Positions 13,247 to 17,314 of a stretch of DNA of 64,000 bases are shown here, in pieces; positions within the stretch are counted from its first letter, which is position 1; every line of letters starts with the position of its first letter. The stretch covers positions 1-64,000 of the forward strand of contig JAJRSD010000062.1 in assembly GCA_024278975.1 (NCBI GenBank), in the 5' to 3' direction. Under the pieces are notes generated by a model. That model saw only the letters and a program-made list of their open reading frames with translations, was not told the origin of the DNA and ran no database searches. Both the position numbers and the translations under genes were made by a program. Origin of the DNA: Bacteroidota bacterium (GTDB taxonomy: Bacteria > Bacteroidota > Bacteroidia > Bacteroidales > Prolixibacteraceae).

Positions 13247-13999
13247 TCAACAATGAACTCCCAACACAAAACCTCGTGTTTTTAAATCTTCAAGGAATTT
13301 GAATACTTCAGAACGAAGCATTTCGAGATCGTTAATTCCGAAGATATAAAGTATATCGTTAAAAATCTCTTCCAATGTTTTTTCAGCCAGAACGATATTT
13401 TCTATCAAAAAAGTAAAAAGTACCGACAGGTTTATAAACTGAACTTTCCCTGTCTCTTTTTCACGAAACAAAAGAAGAAAATAATCACCTTTTTTGTTTG
13501 CTGCTTCAAAAGGTTTTTCCAGATGAACAGGGTATTCCAATTTAATAATTTTATGTTCTGGGTTAACTGCAATTTTCTCTTTCAGCCAATCTTTTGTACT
13601 ATTAACTTGTGGGTAAGTATCGTCTTCCATCATGTATAATTCAACCTCCAGCCACTCGAAATAGAGGAGGTCGTTTAGAAATGGAAGATTAAATTTAGTT
13701 GTGTAATTTTCAGCTTTACAAAAATCGACAAACTCTTTTGGCATTCTCCAAACTTGCGGGTCGTTGCATTTATGACTGCTGAAATAATTATAAACCATTT
13801 CGTCCCAAATTTCAGTATCAATATATTTGAATGAAATAGGAAAAGTAGTTTCCAGAGTATCTTTTATAATATTAAAAACTAATCTTCTGTAATGAGGAAG
13901 ACGCTCCGGATTTGTTCCCAAAATTGCAACTTCTTTACCATCGCGGCAATATTGAACGAAGTTTGATTGCTGATTATATGTTTCTGTTTTCAATAACAT
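13247..13999 (-). CDS. hvfC: DUF2063-type RiPP maturation partner (HvfC/BufC-like)
   Basis: The 250-residue protein shows the DUF2063 pattern near the N-terminus: RLPHYRRLVFNIIKDTLETTFP, then WDEMVYNYFSSHKCNDPQVWRMPKEFVDF and FLNDLLYFEWLEVEL. DUF2063 proteins are encoded beside DUF692 oxidases, bind the precursor leader and form a complex with the oxidase. Its start overlaps the end of the DUF692 gene by 26 bases, so the two are translated together. The C-terminal half (about 140-250) is less typical and may be lineage-specific. The partner assignment is strong from context, moderate from sequence alone. Confidence 0.78.
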   Translation of the reverse strand: MLLKTETYNQQSNFVQYCRDGKEVAILGTNPERLPHYRRLVFNIIKDTLETTFPISFKYIDTEIWDEMVYNYFSSHKCNDPQVWRMPKEFVDFCKAENYTTKFNLPFLNDLLYFEWLEVELYMMEDDTYPQVNSTKDWLKEKIAVNPEHKIIKLEYPVHLEKPFEAANKKGDYFLLLFREKETGKVQFINLSVLFTFLIENIVLAEKTLEEIFNDILYIFGINDLEMLRSEVFKFLEDLKTRGFVLGVHC

Positions 14000-14819
14000 T
14001 TTTTGCCTCCCATTTTTTTGTCATTATAGCTTCGAGGTTATTTAACTCGTTTTGCATCTCCTCCATTTCGGGGATATTAAAATCGCGTTCCAGTAAAACC
14101 GGAACCTGATTAACTCTTTCCAGAGTCCACTCAAAAAGTTCGTAAACAGGGTCGATAATTGCTTCGCCATGTGTGTCGATTATTAAACTGGGCGACACTT
14201 TTGTGTGTCCTGCCATGTGAATGTATTCAACGTGGTCGAGCGGTAAATTTTCAATAAAAGTTTTTGCATCGTAATTATGATTAAATGCGTTTACAAAAAC
14301 ATTATTTACATCAAGCAAAAGTTTGCAATCTGCCTCTTTCACAACATTTGTTATAAAAGTAGCTTCATCCATTTCTGCTGCCACGGGCGTGTAGTACGAA
14401 ACATTTTCGATGGTAATTTGCCTGCCTAAATAATCTTGTACCTGTTTAATTCGTTGCGAAACATGTTTAACTGCATCCTCGCGAAAAGGAATTGGTAACA
14501 AATCGTATAAATGTGCATTGTCGCATTTCGAAAAGCTGAGGTGTTCAGAATATATTTCAATATTATACTCTTCTAAAAAGTGTTTTACATTTTTTAGAAA
14601 ATCCATATCTAATTCATCCGGACTACCAATTGACAGTGAGAGTCCGTGCGCAGTAATCGGATACATTTCTGCTAACTGGTTGAGTTGCTTTTTCCAGTAA
14701 CCCCCAATTTTCATCCAGTTTTCGGGAGCAAGTTCTAAAAATCCGGGCTTTAATACTGAACCCGAAAGGAACTCTTCCGCGAAATCTTTTCTGAATCCTA
14801 TGCCTGCTTTAATGCTCAT
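13974..14819 (-). CDS. hvfB: DUF692 multinuclear non-heme iron oxidase (MNIO), HvfB/BufB-like
   Basis: The 281-residue TIM-barrel protein carries the DUF692 signature: AGIGFRKDF, LELAPENW, AHGLSLSIG (His58), SEHLSF (His93), IENVSYY (Glu138), LLLDVNN (Asp170), HMAGH (His201, His205) and DTHG (Asp215, His217). These residues build the multi-iron site. Characterised relatives (MbnB, TglH, ChrH, HvfB, BufB) oxidatively rearrange cysteines in a precursor to oxazolone/thioamide or thiooxazole groups. The gene lies downstream of a Cys-rich precursor and is fused by overlap to its DUF2063 partner, so the KCGE cysteines are the likely substrate. Confidence 0.9.
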   Translation of the reverse strand: MSIKAGIGFRKDFAEEFLSGSVLKPGFLELAPENWMKIGGYWKKQLNQLAEMYPITAHGLSLSIGSPDELDMDFLKNVKHFLEEYNIEIYSEHLSFSKCDNAHLYDLLPIPFREDAVKHVSQRIKQVQDYLGRQITIENVSYYTPVAAEMDEATFITNVVKEADCKLLLDVNNVFVNAFNHNYDAKTFIENLPLDHVEYIHMAGHTKVSPSLIIDTHGEAIIDPVYELFEWTLERVNQVPVLLERDFNIPEMEEMQNELNNLEAIMTKKWEAKNVIENRNI

Positions 14820-14859
14820 TTTGTTAAATATTAATATTGTAGAATTTTATAAAATAGTG

Positions 14860-14893
14860 AAAAATAAGAGAGAAGAAACTCTCCTCTCTCTTA
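14860..14893 (-). terminator. Terminator-like hairpin between precursor and maturase genes
   Basis: On the minus strand, TAAGAGAG (14893-14886) pairs perfectly with CTCTCTTA (14872-14865), with a further A-T pair inside, followed by five Ts. It sits after the precursor gene and 40 nt before the DUF692 start. It could limit maturase transcription relative to the precursor. Confidence 0.6.
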
Positions 14894-14932
14894 GGGATTA
14901 TGAAGAAATAACCTACCCGTTTTGACTCGTTC

Positions 14933-15010
14933 TTTTGCACGCTAACTTCGTTAAAAAGCCTCGCCGTATCTATGCTATGCCTGCGTTTTTTGCCTTGTTA
15001 TCGCACAAAA
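14933..15010. repeat. Imperfect inverted-repeat element, about 78 bp
   Basis: TTTTGCACGCTAAC (14933-14946) and GTTATCGCACAAAA (14997-15010) are inverted copies with three mismatches. Inside are AAAAAGCCTCG and GCGTTTTTTGCC stretches that pair further. This looks like a small mobile or REP-type intergenic element inserted between hvfA and hvfB. Only one copy is visible in the window, so repetition is not shown. Confidence 0.4.
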
Positions 15011-15070
15011 TAACTTTGTCAATTCCAGTCATGTTATTCTCTTCATAATCTTTTACTCTAATTTCAAGAT

Positions 15071-15475
15071 TTACTTATCTTCACATTTTCCTTCCCCACA
15101 TTTCATCTCTTTACTTTTCGACTCGGTAGCAGCAGCTTTTTTGCTGGCTTTTTTACTTGAGCTTTTGGCATCTGCTTTTTTTACATCGCCTTTTCCCTCG
15201 CCGCACTTTCCCTCACCGCATTTGCCTTCACCACATTTTGCTTCAGCTTTTTTACCCTCGGCTTTAGCTTTTTTTGCAGCTTTTTCACCACATTTTGCTT
15301 CGTAGTTATTAAACTGACTTGTTTCGCTGTTTAAAATTTCAGTACGAACTTCCGCTCCCGAACCAAGCGCATTATAATCGAATAATCTTGATGCGTTTGG
15401 TGTTGCACTTAATGCTGTCACGCTTAATAATGCTCCTGCTACTAATGTTCCTTTAATCAAATTTGCTTTTTTCAT
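15071..15475 (-). CDS. hvfA: HvfA/bufferin-like RiPP metallophore precursor with KCGE repeats
   Basis: The 134-residue protein has a signal peptide (about 1-24), a leader-like segment (25-58) and a Lys/Ala/Gly-rich core with six cysteines at 62, 81, 86, 91, 126 and 131. Five lie in KCGE and the last in KCED; residues 79-95 hold three tandem five-residue repeats of the EGKCG type. This motif is the hallmark of HvfA precursors, whose Cys residues are converted to copper-binding oxazolone/thioamide groups by an MNIO. The spacing region 96-122 is Ser/Lys/Ala-rich. The maturases lie downstream and a sigma/anti-sigma pair upstream. The metal bound is not known. Confidence 0.87.
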   Translation of the reverse strand: MKKANLIKGTLVAGALLSVTALSATPNASRLFDYNALGSGAEVRTEILNSETSQFNNYEAKCGEKAAKKAKAEGKKAEAKCGEGKCGEGKCGEGKGDVKKADAKSSSKKASKKAAATESKSKEMKCGEGKCEDK

Positions 15476-15535
15476 GATATTAAATTTTAAATGAATAATA
15501 ATTTTTTAATTTTTATTAAGATTGATTACAAATAA

Positions 15536-15563
15536 TAGGACGACACTATTACTAAATCCTGAC
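15536..15563 (-). promoter_or_regulatory. Candidate ECF-type promoter of the metallophore precursor
   Basis: On the minus strand, GTCAGG (15563-15558) and CGTCCTA (15542-15536) are separated by 15 nt. Many ECF sigma factors recognise a GGA-type -35 and a CGTC -10 at about this spacing. It lies about 61 nt before the hvfA ATG, while an ECF sigma gene is encoded just upstream. No matching site is seen before the sigma gene itself, so autoregulation is not supported. Confidence 0.35.
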
Positions 15564-15586
15564 AAAAAATATAAAAAAATATTCTT

Positions 15587-15865
15587 TTATCCTTTAATGT
15601 ACTGATTTACAGTGATTTTAATTTGTGATTTTTTTTCTTCAGAAAGTGTTTCTTCAGAGTGAAGGTGTTTGCCTTTATAGAAATCAGTCATCGATTTGTC
15701 TATAATCTGGTTTTGATGGTCAAACTCGTGGCAACTTTTACACATCGATAAGTGAAGCTTTAATTGAATTCTATGTACAAGTTTCAGCTTTTTAAAACTC
15801 TTTACCGAGCTATAAAAAGTAGCCTGTTTACAGGTAAGCATTATTTTGTACATCAATTTTTTCAT
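15587..15865 (-). CDS. Small zinc-finger anti-sigma factor-like protein
   Basis: The 92-residue protein contains HLSMCKSC (about residues 38-45), an HxxxCxxC zinc-binding motif of the ZAS/zf-HC2 anti-sigma type, with another Cys near residue 12. It lacks a membrane segment, so it would be a soluble anti-sigma factor or redox/metal sensor. It starts 11 nt after the upstream sigma gene stop, implying one operon. The Cys/His cluster suggests that metal or thiol stress releases the sigma factor; that is inference. Confidence 0.72.
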   Translation of the reverse strand: MKKLMYKIMLTCKQATFYSSVKSFKKLKLVHRIQLKLHLSMCKSCHEFDHQNQIIDKSMTDFYKGKHLHSEETLSEEKKSQIKITVNQYIKG

Positions 15866-15876
15866 TCTAGTATCAT

Positions 15877-16464
15877 TTATTTATTATGCCATCGTTTCTC
15901 CAAACAACCATGCAGTTGCAGTTTTGCCCTGTGTATAATTGTCCATAAGTTAGACGGTGTAATTTCTAATTCCTTACAGATTTCTTTTGTACTGTACTCA
16001 TCAATGTTTTTCATACTAAAAACCTTTGCCCATTTTTCGGGAAGCAATGATAGACAAAGAATTAGAAACTGCATAAATTCTTCGCGTTCCATGAGTTTAT
16101 CAGCCGAAATATCCCAGTTTTCTTGTGTAGCTTCGTTATTCCATTGTCCCTCCTTTTTAAAGAACTGACCATAAAAAGAGTCGTCGTCAGTTTCAACAAC
16201 AGCACTACTTCTTTTAATCTCCTGATTAGTTTTTTTTCTGAAATAGTCGATTATTTTATTTCGAAGGATATTATATAACCACGATTTTTCCGGGCAGTCG
16301 CGCCTGAATTTGGCTAACGATTTTAATCCTGCCAAAAATGTTTCCTGCACCAAATCTTCTGCAATTTCGCGACTTTTTACACGGTATATTGCAAACCTGA
16401 AAAACTCATCAGAATATTCATCTACCCAAATATTGGGTTCGCATATAAATGTTTGTTTTTTAGC
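15877..16464 (-). CDS. ECF-type RNA polymerase sigma factor of the metallophore locus
   Basis: The preferred product is 195 residues from GTG 16464 (AKKQTFICEPNIWVDEYSDEFFRFA). The frame stays open to a GTG at 16575, but that extension has no family resemblance and overlaps an inverted repeat. Region 2 is clear (REIAEDLVQETFLAGLKSL, SWLYNILRNKIIDYFRKK), and region 4 has YSTKEICKELEITPSNLWTIIHRAKLQLHGCL. It is followed by a zinc-finger anti-sigma gene and the RiPP precursor, so it probably controls that locus. Confidence 0.85.
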   Translation of the reverse strand, partial: AKKQTFICEPNIWVDEYSDEFFRFAIYRVKSREIAEDLVQETFLAGLKSLAKFRRDCPEKSWLYNILRNKIIDYFRKKTNQEIKRSSAVVETDDDSFYGQFFKKEGQWNNEATQENWDISADKLMEREEFMQFLILCLSLLPEKWAKVFSMKNIDEYSTKEICKELEITPSNLWTIIHRAKLQLHGCLEKRWHNK

Positions 16465-16566
16465 CACGATTTGAAGGTAGAGAGTTTTTGAGTGAAAAAC
16501 AATAAAGTAGCGAAGTCTTTTAAATTCTTGTTTACAAGGGTTATTAAGATATTTATAAATTACAAT

Positions 16567-16600
16567 AATTGGCACTTAACAATCGGGTTTAGTGCCAATT
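16567..16600. promoter_or_regulatory. Perfect 10-bp inverted repeat upstream of grpE-dnaJ (candidate operator)
   Basis: AATTGGCACT (16567-16576) and AGTGCCAATT (16591-16600) are perfect inverted copies separated by 14 nt. A TAnnTTTG -7 element begins eight bases downstream, so the repeat covers the upstream promoter region of grpE-dnaJ. The inner GCACT/AGTGC halves match those of the CIRCE heat-shock operator, but CIRCE has 11 nt between them, not 14. Confidence 0.55.
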
Positions 16601-16708: not shown

Positions 16709-17314
16709 ATGGAAGGTAAAAAAATAGATATTGAAACGGAAGAAAATCGGGAAGAGGTAAAAATTGAGACTCCAAACACTGAGGAGACAAACAGTTCGGA
16801 AAAGGAGAAATCTTCGGAAGATAAATCAGGGAAAAAGAAAAAATCTAAAAAGGATAAAAGAGAAGCTAAAATTGAAGAGTTGAATGAAAAACTTCAGGAA
16901 ATACAAGATAAACATTTACGTTTGCAGGCTGAATTCGACAACTTTCGTCGCCGGACAATTAAAGAAAAAGTTGATTTAATAAAATCGGGTGGCGAGTCAG
17001 TTTTGGTAAATATACTTCCGGTTATCGACGATTTTGAGAGAGCTTTAGATTCGTTAAAAAATGTTCCGGATGATGATGCCGGAAAACAAGGAACAACTCT
17101 TATTTACAATAAATTCGAAGAGTTTCTGAAACAGAATAGTGTAAAAGAGATTAACGCTTTGCATCAGGATTTTGATGTTGATTTGCACGAAGCATTAACA
17201 AAAATACCGGCTCCTAAAAAGAAGCTAAAAGGTAAAGTTGTTGATGTAATTCAAAAAGGATATTTGCTTAACGAAAAGGTAATCCGGTTTGCCAAAGTTG
17301 TAATCGGAGAATAA
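16709..17314 (+). CDS. grpE: Co-chaperone GrpE (nucleotide exchange factor for DnaK)
   Basis: The 201-residue protein has a disordered Lys/Glu-rich N-terminus (1-60), a long coiled coil (about 60-115; [16 protein letters not shown]) and the GrpE head ending RFAKVVIGE. GrpE releases ADP from DnaK and acts as a thermosensor. It is followed 14 nt later by dnaJ, forming a heat-shock operon; dnaK is not in this window. A perfect inverted repeat and -7 element lie upstream. Confidence 0.95.

What the first reader, a model, noticed from the sequence alone, without database searches (positions are those of the whole stretch)
13247..16464. Complete MNIO-RiPP metallophore locus with dedicated sigma/anti-sigma control
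Five minus-strand genes fit one system: ECF sigma, soluble HxxxCxxC anti-sigma, secreted precursor with six Cys in KCGE/KCED repeats, DUF692 iron oxidase and DUF2063 partner. Known HvfABC and bufferin systems convert such Cys to oxazolone/thioamide or thiooxazole metal ligands, mostly described in Proteobacteria. A Bacteroidota version under its own sigma factor, with a split repeat array (three tandem repeats plus separated ones) and no visible DoxX-type gene, is worth study.
Basis: partly seen in the sequence, partly recalled or inferred. Interest (0 to 1): 0.85.

Follow-up and report, generated by a model that had tools for sequence, protein, structure and literature searches.

The report
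Copper-peptide operon with self-reading sigma switch
A Bacteroidota genome carries a known kind of operon that should make a copper-binding peptide, and the gene for its dedicated sigma factor appears to hide, inside the codons of its own DNA-binding helix, a promoter that turns on the sigma factor's inhibitor.

Summary
In detail: five minus-strand genes (13247-16467) encode an ECF sigma factor, a soluble zinc-type (ZAS) anti-sigma, a six-Cys KCGE precursor, an HvfB-family MNIO and a DUF2063/HvfC-like partner. This is an HvfABC / EGKCG captophorin locus; the likely chemistry is Cys to 5-thiooxazole, for copper or thiol stress.

Sigma/anti-sigma control of such genes is not new (Neisseria, Haemophilus). 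"No DoxX" is local: 50 of 80 related loci carry it downstream of hvfC. Split Cys arrays are ordinary (4-8 Cys).

Beyond the finding: a probable sigma promoter, TGTAAGG-N15-CG(T/A)C, lies before the precursor in 47 of 53 loci with the sigma gene and 4 of 24 without. A second copy lies inside the sigma gene, in the codons of its own HTH, before the anti-sigma gene: 53 of 53 sigma genes (synonymous redraws reach at most 17), and 34 of 39 related sigma genes with no hvf gene in view. Codons over its two boxes are the four most synonymously conserved of 185. One locus outside the training set has the sigma but neither site. Built-in negative feedback is the best reading; no transcript or product was measured. 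C. glutamicum rshA is a precedent for the arrangement.

The parts
15877..16467 (-). ECF sigma factor (TIGR02943-like, probably ECF group 13); GTG start likely but not proven
   Evidence: Pfam Sigma70_r2/r4_2 over cut-off; TIGR02943 149.5 bits, below its cut-off 162.2; sigma plus anti-sigma stand upstream in 50 of 72 related loci with at least 1.5 kb upstream
15953..15978 (-). in-gene promoter-like site TGTAAGG-N15-CGTC inside the sigma gene, in the codons C164-K-E-L-E-I-T-P-S172 of region 4; begins 113 nt before the anti-sigma start
   Evidence: score 26.6 with a matrix made without the window; same place in 53 of 53 sigma genes; codons 171, 172, 164, 165 are the four most synonymously conserved of 185 columns
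15587..15865 (-). soluble ZAS-type anti-sigma factor, C12-X25-H38xxxC42xxC45
   Evidence: sequence; C12, H38, C42, C45 invariant in six aligned sequences, window included; same spacing as MseR C4/H30/C34/C37 and RsrA C11/H37/C41/C44 given in PMC2893595
15539..15564 (-). promoter-like site TGTCAGG-N15-CGTC upstream of the precursor, begins 89 nt before its ATG
   Evidence: score 18.7 with a matrix made without the window; the two best sites of the window are the in-gene one and this, the next scores 10.1
15071..15475 (-). HvfA-like precursor, 134 aa, probable Sec signal (read by eye, no predictor run), conserved LFDYxxLGSGxEVR segment, six Cys in KCGE/KCED motifs
   Evidence: NF050137 over cut-off; [LM]G[STN][GAR] segment in 76 of 77 relatives, the other cut by its contig start
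14865..14893 (-). hairpin plus T-run between precursor and MNIO gene; likely leaky terminator that keeps precursor above enzyme
   Evidence: terminator-like site (5 such sites in the stretch, shuffles 2.1 on average); -15.9 kcal/mol, z -2.49 for the 61-nt stretch; similar hairpin in 53 of 76 relatives, 20 shuffles 0-10, anti-sigma/precursor gaps 4 of 48
13974..14819 (-). HvfB-family MNIO (DUF692) oxidase
   Evidence: PF05114 341 bits, NF003818 389.3 over cut-off 360; best solved relative PDB 3BWW, E 1.2e-72
13247..13999 (-). DUF2063 / HvfC-like partner protein (PME type 1), overlaps the MNIO gene by 26 nt
   Evidence: PF09836 and NGO1945_C over cut-off; NF050145 131.1, below its cut-off 142

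Best explanation
This is an HvfABC-type captophorin locus. The precursor is made with a Sec-type leader, HvfB with HvfC oxidises its KCG cysteines (most likely to 5-thiooxazoles), and the exported peptide binds copper in the envelope. Expression is set by the ECF sigma, held by a soluble zinc anti-sigma. When the anti-sigma's Zn-thiolate site is disturbed (oxidant, electrophile or metal), the sigma is freed and reads two TGTAAGG-N15-CGTC promoters. One lies before the precursor gene and gives much precursor and, past a leaky hairpin, less enzyme. The other lies inside the sigma gene, in the codons of its own -35-binding helix-turn-helix, and drives the anti-sigma gene and what follows, giving built-in negative feedback. 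Shown by sequence: gene families, synteny, promoter motif, its co-occurrence with the sigma gene, nucleotide-level constraint on the in-gene site, the hairpin. Inferred: that this sigma reads these sites, the feedback, the thiooxazole product, copper binding and the inducing signal.
For: Families. Synteny: precursor in 77 of 80, hvfC in 79 of 80, ECF plus anti-sigma in 50 of the 72 loci with at least 1.5 kb upstream. Site before hvfA in 47 of 53 sigma-bearing loci (window counted) against 4 of 24 without (Fisher 1.1e-9, not corrected for kinship). In-gene site, with a matrix built only from sites upstream of hvfA: 53 of 53 sigma genes, 96-114 nt before the gene end; synonymous redraws mean 10.5, highest 17 of 53. 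The Lys165 codon is AAG in 50 and AAA in 1 of 51 Lys there, while pooled Lys usage in these genes is 746 AAA to 286 AAG; the residue before Ser172 varies (S, P, A, T) but its codon ends in G in 92%. Rare boxes are shared by both sites of a locus: CTAC in L027, TGTCAGG and CAAC in L091. Three flavobacterial loci with almost no anti-sigma/hvfA gap (L059, L075, L096) have no hvfA site but keep the in-gene one. Of five sigma-bearing loci outside the training set, four have both sites: G099 19.9 and 28.0, G051 15.6 and 20.8, G134 26.3 and 23.6, G460 26.7 and 28.1 (hvfA, in-gene). Sigma control of hvf genes by experiment elsewhere: PMC2893595, PMC7907618. 5-thiooxazole and copper: PMC13097082, PMC13419390.
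Against: The fifth held-out locus, L214 (G105, HvfB match below cut-off), has sigma, precursor, hvfB and hvfC but no site over 12, neither in the sigma gene nor before the precursor. The window's hvfA site reads TGTCAGG, off the commonest form. Six of 53 sigma-bearing loci lack a scored hvfA site (L059, L063, L067, L075, L096, L099; L063 shows one with a 16-nt spacer), and 4 of 24 loci without the sigma keep one (L020, L035, L056, L078). The -10 tetrads of the two sites are identical in only 26 of the 47 loci that have both. The kinship-controlled test of sigma/promoter linkage is not significant: 6 supported pairs, 4.3 same way, 0.1 opposite, median p 0.125. No genome-wide excess of the pattern: own genome 4 matches vs 3 for the reversed control, 31 vs 35 with one mismatch; six relatives 26 vs 48. 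The HvfC, HvfA-equivalog, TIGR02943 and anti-sigma models score below their cut-offs. Nothing here measures transcription, modification or metal binding.
Confidence: 0.75

Rival explanations
1. The in-gene site is not a promoter; the codons of C-K-E-L...S-N are conserved for another nucleotide-level reason (mRNA structure, translation coupling to the anti-sigma gene, pausing), and the match to the hvfA promoter is a coincidence of codon choice.
For: C, E, L, S and N are conserved as amino acids too, so part of the motif comes free: synonymous redraws still give 10.5 of 53. The site also sits in sigma genes with no hvf gene in view (34 of 39). In 21 of 47 loci the -10 tetrads of the two sites differ.
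Against: Both boxes and the 15-nt spacer equal those of a site found independently before hvfA, and the four extreme codons lie exactly under the boxes. In L027 and L091 rare boxes match between the two sites. All 41 sigma loci show an anti-sigma-like ORF, as an anti-sigma promoter would need.
Confidence: 0.15
2. The product carries another cysteine modification or binds another metal (bufferin-like, oxazolone/thioamide, zinc, gold), or stays unmodified as a metallothionein-like chelator.
For: The bufferin maturase model is close (NF050167 288.3 vs cut-off 310). None of the papers listed by my searches (capped lists) reports a measured product of this type from Bacteroidota.
Against: The HvfB model is over its cut-off and the repeats are KCGE/EGKCG, the type shown to carry 5-thiooxazole in H. 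influenzae, N. gonorrhoeae and Fontimonas products.
Confidence: 0.2
3. The sigma/anti-sigma pair is a general envelope redox sensor and hvfABC is only one client; the locus is not metal-dedicated.
For: Related pairs with no hvf gene in view stand before genes that read, by eye, as MsrA (L246), YceI-like proteins (L232, L247) and an AhpC/TSA-like protein (L226). In relatives the motif also precedes DoxX (L128), DUF4395 (L105, L125) and a thioredoxin-like protein (L106). HOCl induces the Haemophilus cluster through RpoE2.
Against: In this genome only 4 exact sites exist, two of them at this locus, so any wider regulon here is small; the pattern shows no excess over its control.
Confidence: 0.4

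Closest known systems
Neisseria rpoE operon NMB2140-NMB2145 (gonophorin locus in N. gonorrhoeae)
   Same: MNIO, DUF2063 partner and precursor with an ECF sigma and a soluble ZAS anti-sigma in one operon; same Cys/His spacing in the anti-sigma (PMC2893595 passages; gene identities through PMC7907618, and PMC13097082)
   Different: has a DoxX-like gene; the operon is reported as autoregulated as a whole, whereas here no site is seen before the sigma gene (window 6.4 in 220 nt) and one is seen inside it; no in-gene site is described in the passages read
H. influenzae hvf cluster under RpoE2/HrsE
   Same: EGKCG precursor with six modifiable Cys, HvfB, HvfC; a sigma with a small ZAS anti-sigma controls the cluster (PMC7907618, PMC13419390 passages)
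   Different: sigma is encoded elsewhere in the genome; DoxX-like gene present
Fontiphorin and other captophorins (Pseudomonadota), Buf_EGKCG/oxazolin class
   Same: KCG repeats, MNIO plus PME1 partner, signal-peptide leader (PMC13097082, PMC12452194)
   Different: Bacteroidota precursors share an LGSG-type segment (76 of 77); the one Pseudomonadota precursor read here (Moraxella plasmid) lacks it
SigH/RshA of Corynebacterium glutamicum
   Same: a sigma-dependent promoter for the anti-sigma gene lies within the sigma coding region (PMC3489674 passages)
   Different: other phylum; the passages read do not place it in the helix-turn-helix codons or report conservation across a phylum

Membership tests
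HvfABC / EGKCG captophorin (oxazolin class) | HvfB-type MNIO | tested here: met
   NF003818 389.3 bits, cut-off 360
HvfABC / EGKCG captophorin (oxazolin class) | DUF2063/PME1 partner next to it | tested here: met
   PF09836 and NGO1945_C over cut-off; the HvfC equivalog model is below its cut-off (131.1 vs 142)
HvfABC / EGKCG captophorin (oxazolin class) | precursor with repeated KCG motifs | tested here: met
   NF050137 25.6, cut-off 19.5; the HvfA equivalog model NF050188 is far below (25 vs 95)
HvfABC / EGKCG captophorin (oxazolin class) | Sec signal peptide on the precursor | tested here: inconclusive
   basic start and hydrophobic stretch read by eye in the window and in precursors listed; no predictor run
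HvfABC / EGKCG captophorin (oxazolin class) | DoxX gene in the cluster (common, not universal) | tested here: not met
   no such ORF beside the locus; that DoxX type not matched in the genome at E 1e-5; present in 50 of 80 relatives
HvfABC / EGKCG captophorin (oxazolin class) | 5-thiooxazole on Cys and Cu binding | not testable with these tools
   needs MS, UV, NMR
Bufferin (BufB) | bufferin maturase model over cut-off and a DUF2282 precursor | tested here: not met
   NF050167 288.3 vs cut-off 310; precursor has no Pfam match at E 1; the 6/12-Cys profile was not on hand
ECF group 13 with ZAS anti-sigma | soluble anti-sigma with C/H-X23-26-H-X3-C-X2-C | tested here: met
   C12-X25-H38-X3-C42-X2-C45, invariant in six aligned sequences; motif as quoted in PMC7907618
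ECF group 13 with ZAS anti-sigma | sigma assigned to group 13 by that classification's models | not tested
   models not on hand; nearest NCBIfam TIGR02943 149.5, below cut-off 162.2

The most novel reading that the evidence does not exclude
The sigma gene is self-reading. The codons of the helix-turn-helix that binds -35 DNA are themselves a promoter read by the sigma they encode, firing the anti-sigma gene that follows; this feedback is written into the protein sequence across Bacteroidota and Ignavibacteriota, hvf-linked or not. The Lys/Gln choice at residue 165 follows the codon AAG/CAG and so the promoter base A/C: in 55 sigma genes, Lys goes with TGTAAGG in the neighbouring site in 47 of 49 and Gln with TGTCAGG in 6 of 6. 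That link rests on a single change of the residue on the tree, so whether the residue reads the base or the promoter dictates the residue is open.
Probability: 0.65. Interest if true: 0.75.

Novelty: new variant of a known kind. Interest (0 to 1): 0.6.

Why it matters
It extends a copper-peptide class described mostly from Pseudomonadota to a wide set of Bacteroidota and Ignavibacteriota. It gives a concrete promoter motif by which the class and its possible co-regulated genes can be sought. It also makes a neat question directly testable: can one DNA stretch serve both as the code for a DNA-reading helix and as the site that helix reads, and does that lock the feedback of a stress switch in place over long evolution?

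Tried and rejected
Wider regulon by pattern alone: not supported, no genome-wide excess (own genome 4 vs 3 control, 31 vs 35 with one mismatch; six relatives 26 vs 48). Autoregulatory site before the sigma gene: none scored in up to 220 nt (window 6.4, others at most 5.3), though sigma starts were called mechanically. A residue-base code (Lys/Gln to A/C): strong by count, but one change on the tree. Remnants of the sigma gene in the 24 loci without it: tblastn with sigma and anti-sigma proteins of ten loci found only a 36-aa anti-sigma piece in L058, where a site of 26.1 also survives. DoxX elsewhere in the genome under the sigma: four DoxX-family matches, best site near them 9.3. Literature for an in-gene promoter before an anti-sigma gene: two searches (15 of 19 and 4 of 4 papers listed) gave C. 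glutamicum rshA and, as a looser parallel, Caulobacter sigV inside cabp. Literature for Bacteroidota members: of the papers listed (4 of 5; 10 of 23) I recognised none on this type; PMC12636315 concerns the ChrH type of MNIO, of which I saw the listing and the start of the abstract only. PMC12452194 and PMC13097082 show no 'Bacteroid' in the text searched; figures and supplements were not seen.

Rows dropped or counted with doubt. One search left out one upstream region under 60 nt (L084); three loci had no precursor in view (L021, L068, L089). Its 24 loci 'without sigma' include L035 and L086, whose contigs are too short upstream to judge. L036's sigma gene is split over two frames in the assembly; only its 3' piece was used, and it was left out (52 of 53 genes). 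One search used 41 sigma genes: 12 and 29 of the 30 loci (L224 is the same gene as L131). Two of them (L245, L253) are hvf-linked and are taken out of the 34-of-39 count; 'no hvf gene in view' means none within the 1.5-kb flanks. One (L250) had its motif misplaced by my search and counts as a miss, with L131, L242, L243 and L249. One search scored A and C alike at motif position 4; with them scored apart L178 and L181 fall to 11.3 and 10.4. One search used 41 of the 47 hvf-linked loci (my word search missed sigmas with CKDL or CKEV) and 14 others. The 80 loci are the nearest of 281 confirmed, not an even sample. In the phylum sample 26 of 394 genomes had any match and 7 were over the cut-off, the window's own among them; of the other six, four show sigma, anti-sigma and precursor, one a precursor only and one neither.


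Full report
WHAT IS THERE. Profile searches name the MNIO as HvfB family (NF003818 389.3 bits, cut-off 360; PF05114 341 bits), the partner as DUF2063 with the NGO1945 C-terminal domain, the precursor as a KCGExKCG protein (NF050137 over cut-off) and the first gene as an ECF sigma factor. The nearest solved relative of the MNIO is PDB 3BWW, which PMC13097082 also names as an MNIO with a PME1 neighbour. The anti-sigma scores below curated cut-offs, but has C12-X25-H38xxxC42xxC45, invariant in the window and five aligned relatives, with the same spacing as MseR and RsrA as given in PMC2893595. The assembly is 99.6% complete with one MNIO and one KCGE match. Named relatives (Draconibacterium, another Prolixibacteraceae MAG) are 82-85% identical in HvfB, so the window most likely comes from that family; this is inference.

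HOW WIDESPREAD. In 100 genomes of the same family 7 have HvfB, the window's own among them. All seven have A, B and C together, and six have the sigma pair beside them. In a phylum sample of 394 genomes 26 have any match and 7 are over the cut-off, own included. A scan of genome contigs with the family alignment confirmed 281 relatives and kept the best 80, titled Bacteroidota or Ignavibacteriota taxa, one Bdellovibrionales MAG and one unnamed bacterium. Of these 80, 77 show the precursor and 79 the DUF2063 gene. ECF plus anti-sigma stand upstream in 50 of the 72 loci with at least 1.5 kb upstream, and in 52 of 80 overall. A DoxX gene lies downstream of hvfC in 50 of 80, 46 within 120 nt; its absence here looks like a local loss. 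Precursors carry 4 to 8 Cys, and 76 of 77 share an [LM]G[STN][GAR] segment after the leader, the exception being cut by its contig start. This segment is a candidate recognition site for HvfC (inference). Four Chitinophaga precursors have KC[A/S/T] in place of KCG.

THE PROMOTERS. Word counts upstream of the precursor gave TGTAAGG in 37 of 77 regions, against 0.5 expected from Markov shuffles, with CGTC at a fixed distance. The matrix is TGTAAGG-N15-CG(T/A)C(T)A; sites of score 12 or more begin 55 to 102 nt before the ATG. It is present in 47 of 53 loci with the sigma gene (window included) and in 4 of 24 without. Control for kinship leaves few independent contrasts: 6 pairs, direction 4.3 to 0.1, not significant. 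Scanning the window with a matrix made without it, the two best sites of 64 kb on both strands are one inside the sigma gene (15978, 26.6) and the one before the precursor (15564, 18.7); the next is 10.1. The in-gene site codes for C164-K-E-L-E-I-T-P-S172 of sigma region 4. That this is the helix-turn-helix which meets -35 DNA is recalled knowledge of sigma factors. With the matrix built only from sites upstream of hvfA, 53 of 53 sigma genes hold such a site 96-114 nt before the gene end. Redrawing synonymous codons from pooled usage gives a mean of 10.5 and at most 17 of 53. Among 185 codon columns the four with the greatest excess synonymous identity are 171, 172, 164 and 165, the codons under the two boxes. 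Where the residue before Ser172 changes among Ser, Pro, Ala and Thr, the third base stays G in 92%. Rare boxes occur in both sites of the same locus in L027 and L091, but over all 47 loci with both sites the -10 tetrads are identical in only 26. Three flavobacterial loci whose anti-sigma and precursor genes nearly touch have no separate precursor site but keep the in-gene one. Of five sigma-bearing loci not used in training, four have both sites and one, L214 (HvfB match below cut-off), has neither.

A PROPERTY OF THE SIGMA FAMILY. Related sigma genes with no hvf gene in their 1.5-kb flanks carry the in-gene site in 34 of 39 (A and C scored alike at position 4); the window genome's own paralogue does not. 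All 41 loci show an anti-sigma-like ORF. Nine of the 39 have both the in-gene site and a further site 272-316 nt past the sigma gene, and L242 has one at 267 nt. The genes there read, by eye, as YceI-like proteins (L232, L247), a membrane protein followed by MsrA (L246), a YHS-type protein (L229) and a small Cys-rich secreted protein (L248). This agrees with the redox regulons of Neisseria and Haemophilus, where MsrAB is another main target. So the switch is probably a general envelope thiol/oxidant switch to which hvfABC was hitched, rather than one invented for the peptide (inference).

EXPRESSION RATIO. Between precursor and MNIO genes lies a hairpin with a T-run (14893-14865). A similar feature occurs in 53 of 76 relatives, against 0-10 in 20 rounds of shuffles and 4 of 48 anti-sigma/precursor gaps. 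A leaky terminator that keeps substrate above enzyme fits (inference).

WHAT IS KNOWN. Captophorins (bufferins, oxazolin, fontiphorin, bulbicupramide, gonophorin) are Cu-associated peptides with 5-thiooxazoles made by MNIO plus PME1; oxazolin's oxazolone/thioamide was revised to 5-thiooxazole (PMC13097082, passages and section 7; PMC13419390, passages). The landscape paper finds sigma and NrsF genes in Buf1 but not Buf2 clusters, and EGKCG precursors mostly in Pseudomonadota with core and DoxX genes (PMC12452194, passages and section 15). Sigma plus ZAS anti-sigma in one operon with these genes was described in Neisseria in 2010, and in trans in Haemophilus in 2021. A sediment Moraxella plasmid also has a sigma-70 factor gene beside hvf genes. 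A sigma-dependent anti-sigma promoter within a sigma gene is known from C. glutamicum. Two literature searches for the in-gene arrangement listed nothing that I recognised on Bacteroidota; the library lacks most subscription papers and the lists are capped, so absence is weak evidence.

VERDICT. The locus is a Bacteroidota member of a known class with a known kind of control. The in-gene promoter, placed in the codons of the DNA-reading helix and held at nucleotide level across this sigma family, is the surprising part and is directly testable. On re-checking I added the counter-example L214 and the 26-of-47 box agreement; I left the odds as they were, since 53 of 53 and the codon test still stand.

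Noticed in passing
L215:2352-2594 (minus), site at 2691: A second captophorin-like precursor type (CKSKDGCKGKDG repeats) beside an MNIO below the HvfB cut-off, with a ZAS anti-sigma-like ORF nearby and a strong TGTAAGG-N15-CGAC site 97 nt before the start.
   Followed up: partly
L248, 351-656 nt past the sigma gene end: Small secreted Cys-rich protein (8 Cys, HVCTADCK-like motifs) behind a sigma/anti-sigma pair and its promoter site; no hvf gene within the 1.5-kb flank. Possible unmodified metal binder.
   Followed up: no
G000:C30:62292-62317 (L100) and G000:C90:79499-79524 (L103): The other two exact sites of the window's genome lie 51 and 49 nt before a Crp/FNR-type regulator and a DUF427 protein. 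Possible small regulon; the count does not clearly exceed the control.
   Followed up: partly
L105 (G099), L125 (G010), L128 (G051), L106 (G026): In relatives the motif stands before DUF4395 proteins (two genomes), a DoxX protein away from hvf, and a thioredoxin-like protein.
   Followed up: partly
L047:8943-9503; also L050, L061, L073: A second, different ECF sigma gene lies downstream of hvfC; in L047 and L073 a strong site sits 42 nt before its start, which suggests a sigma cascade.
   Followed up: no
window 16567-16600: 14-nt inverted repeat AATTGGCACTTAAC / GTTTAGTGCCAATT with a 6-nt gap, between the sigma gene and the divergent genes at 16709 on (GrpE- and DnaJ-like, by eye); looks like an operator, distantly like CIRCE (recalled).
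   Followed up: no
L220 (Moraxella sp. plasmid NZ_CP135142.1): hvf cluster on an 11-kb plasmid, with an IS4-family transposase gene annotated between the MNIO and DUF2063 genes and a sigma-70 factor gene next to it.
   Followed up: no
G000:C52:3135-3674 (L131): The window genome's paralogous sigma/anti-sigma pair lacks the in-gene site (TGT ACC CAA, score -1.1) while most relatives examined keep it.
   Followed up: partly
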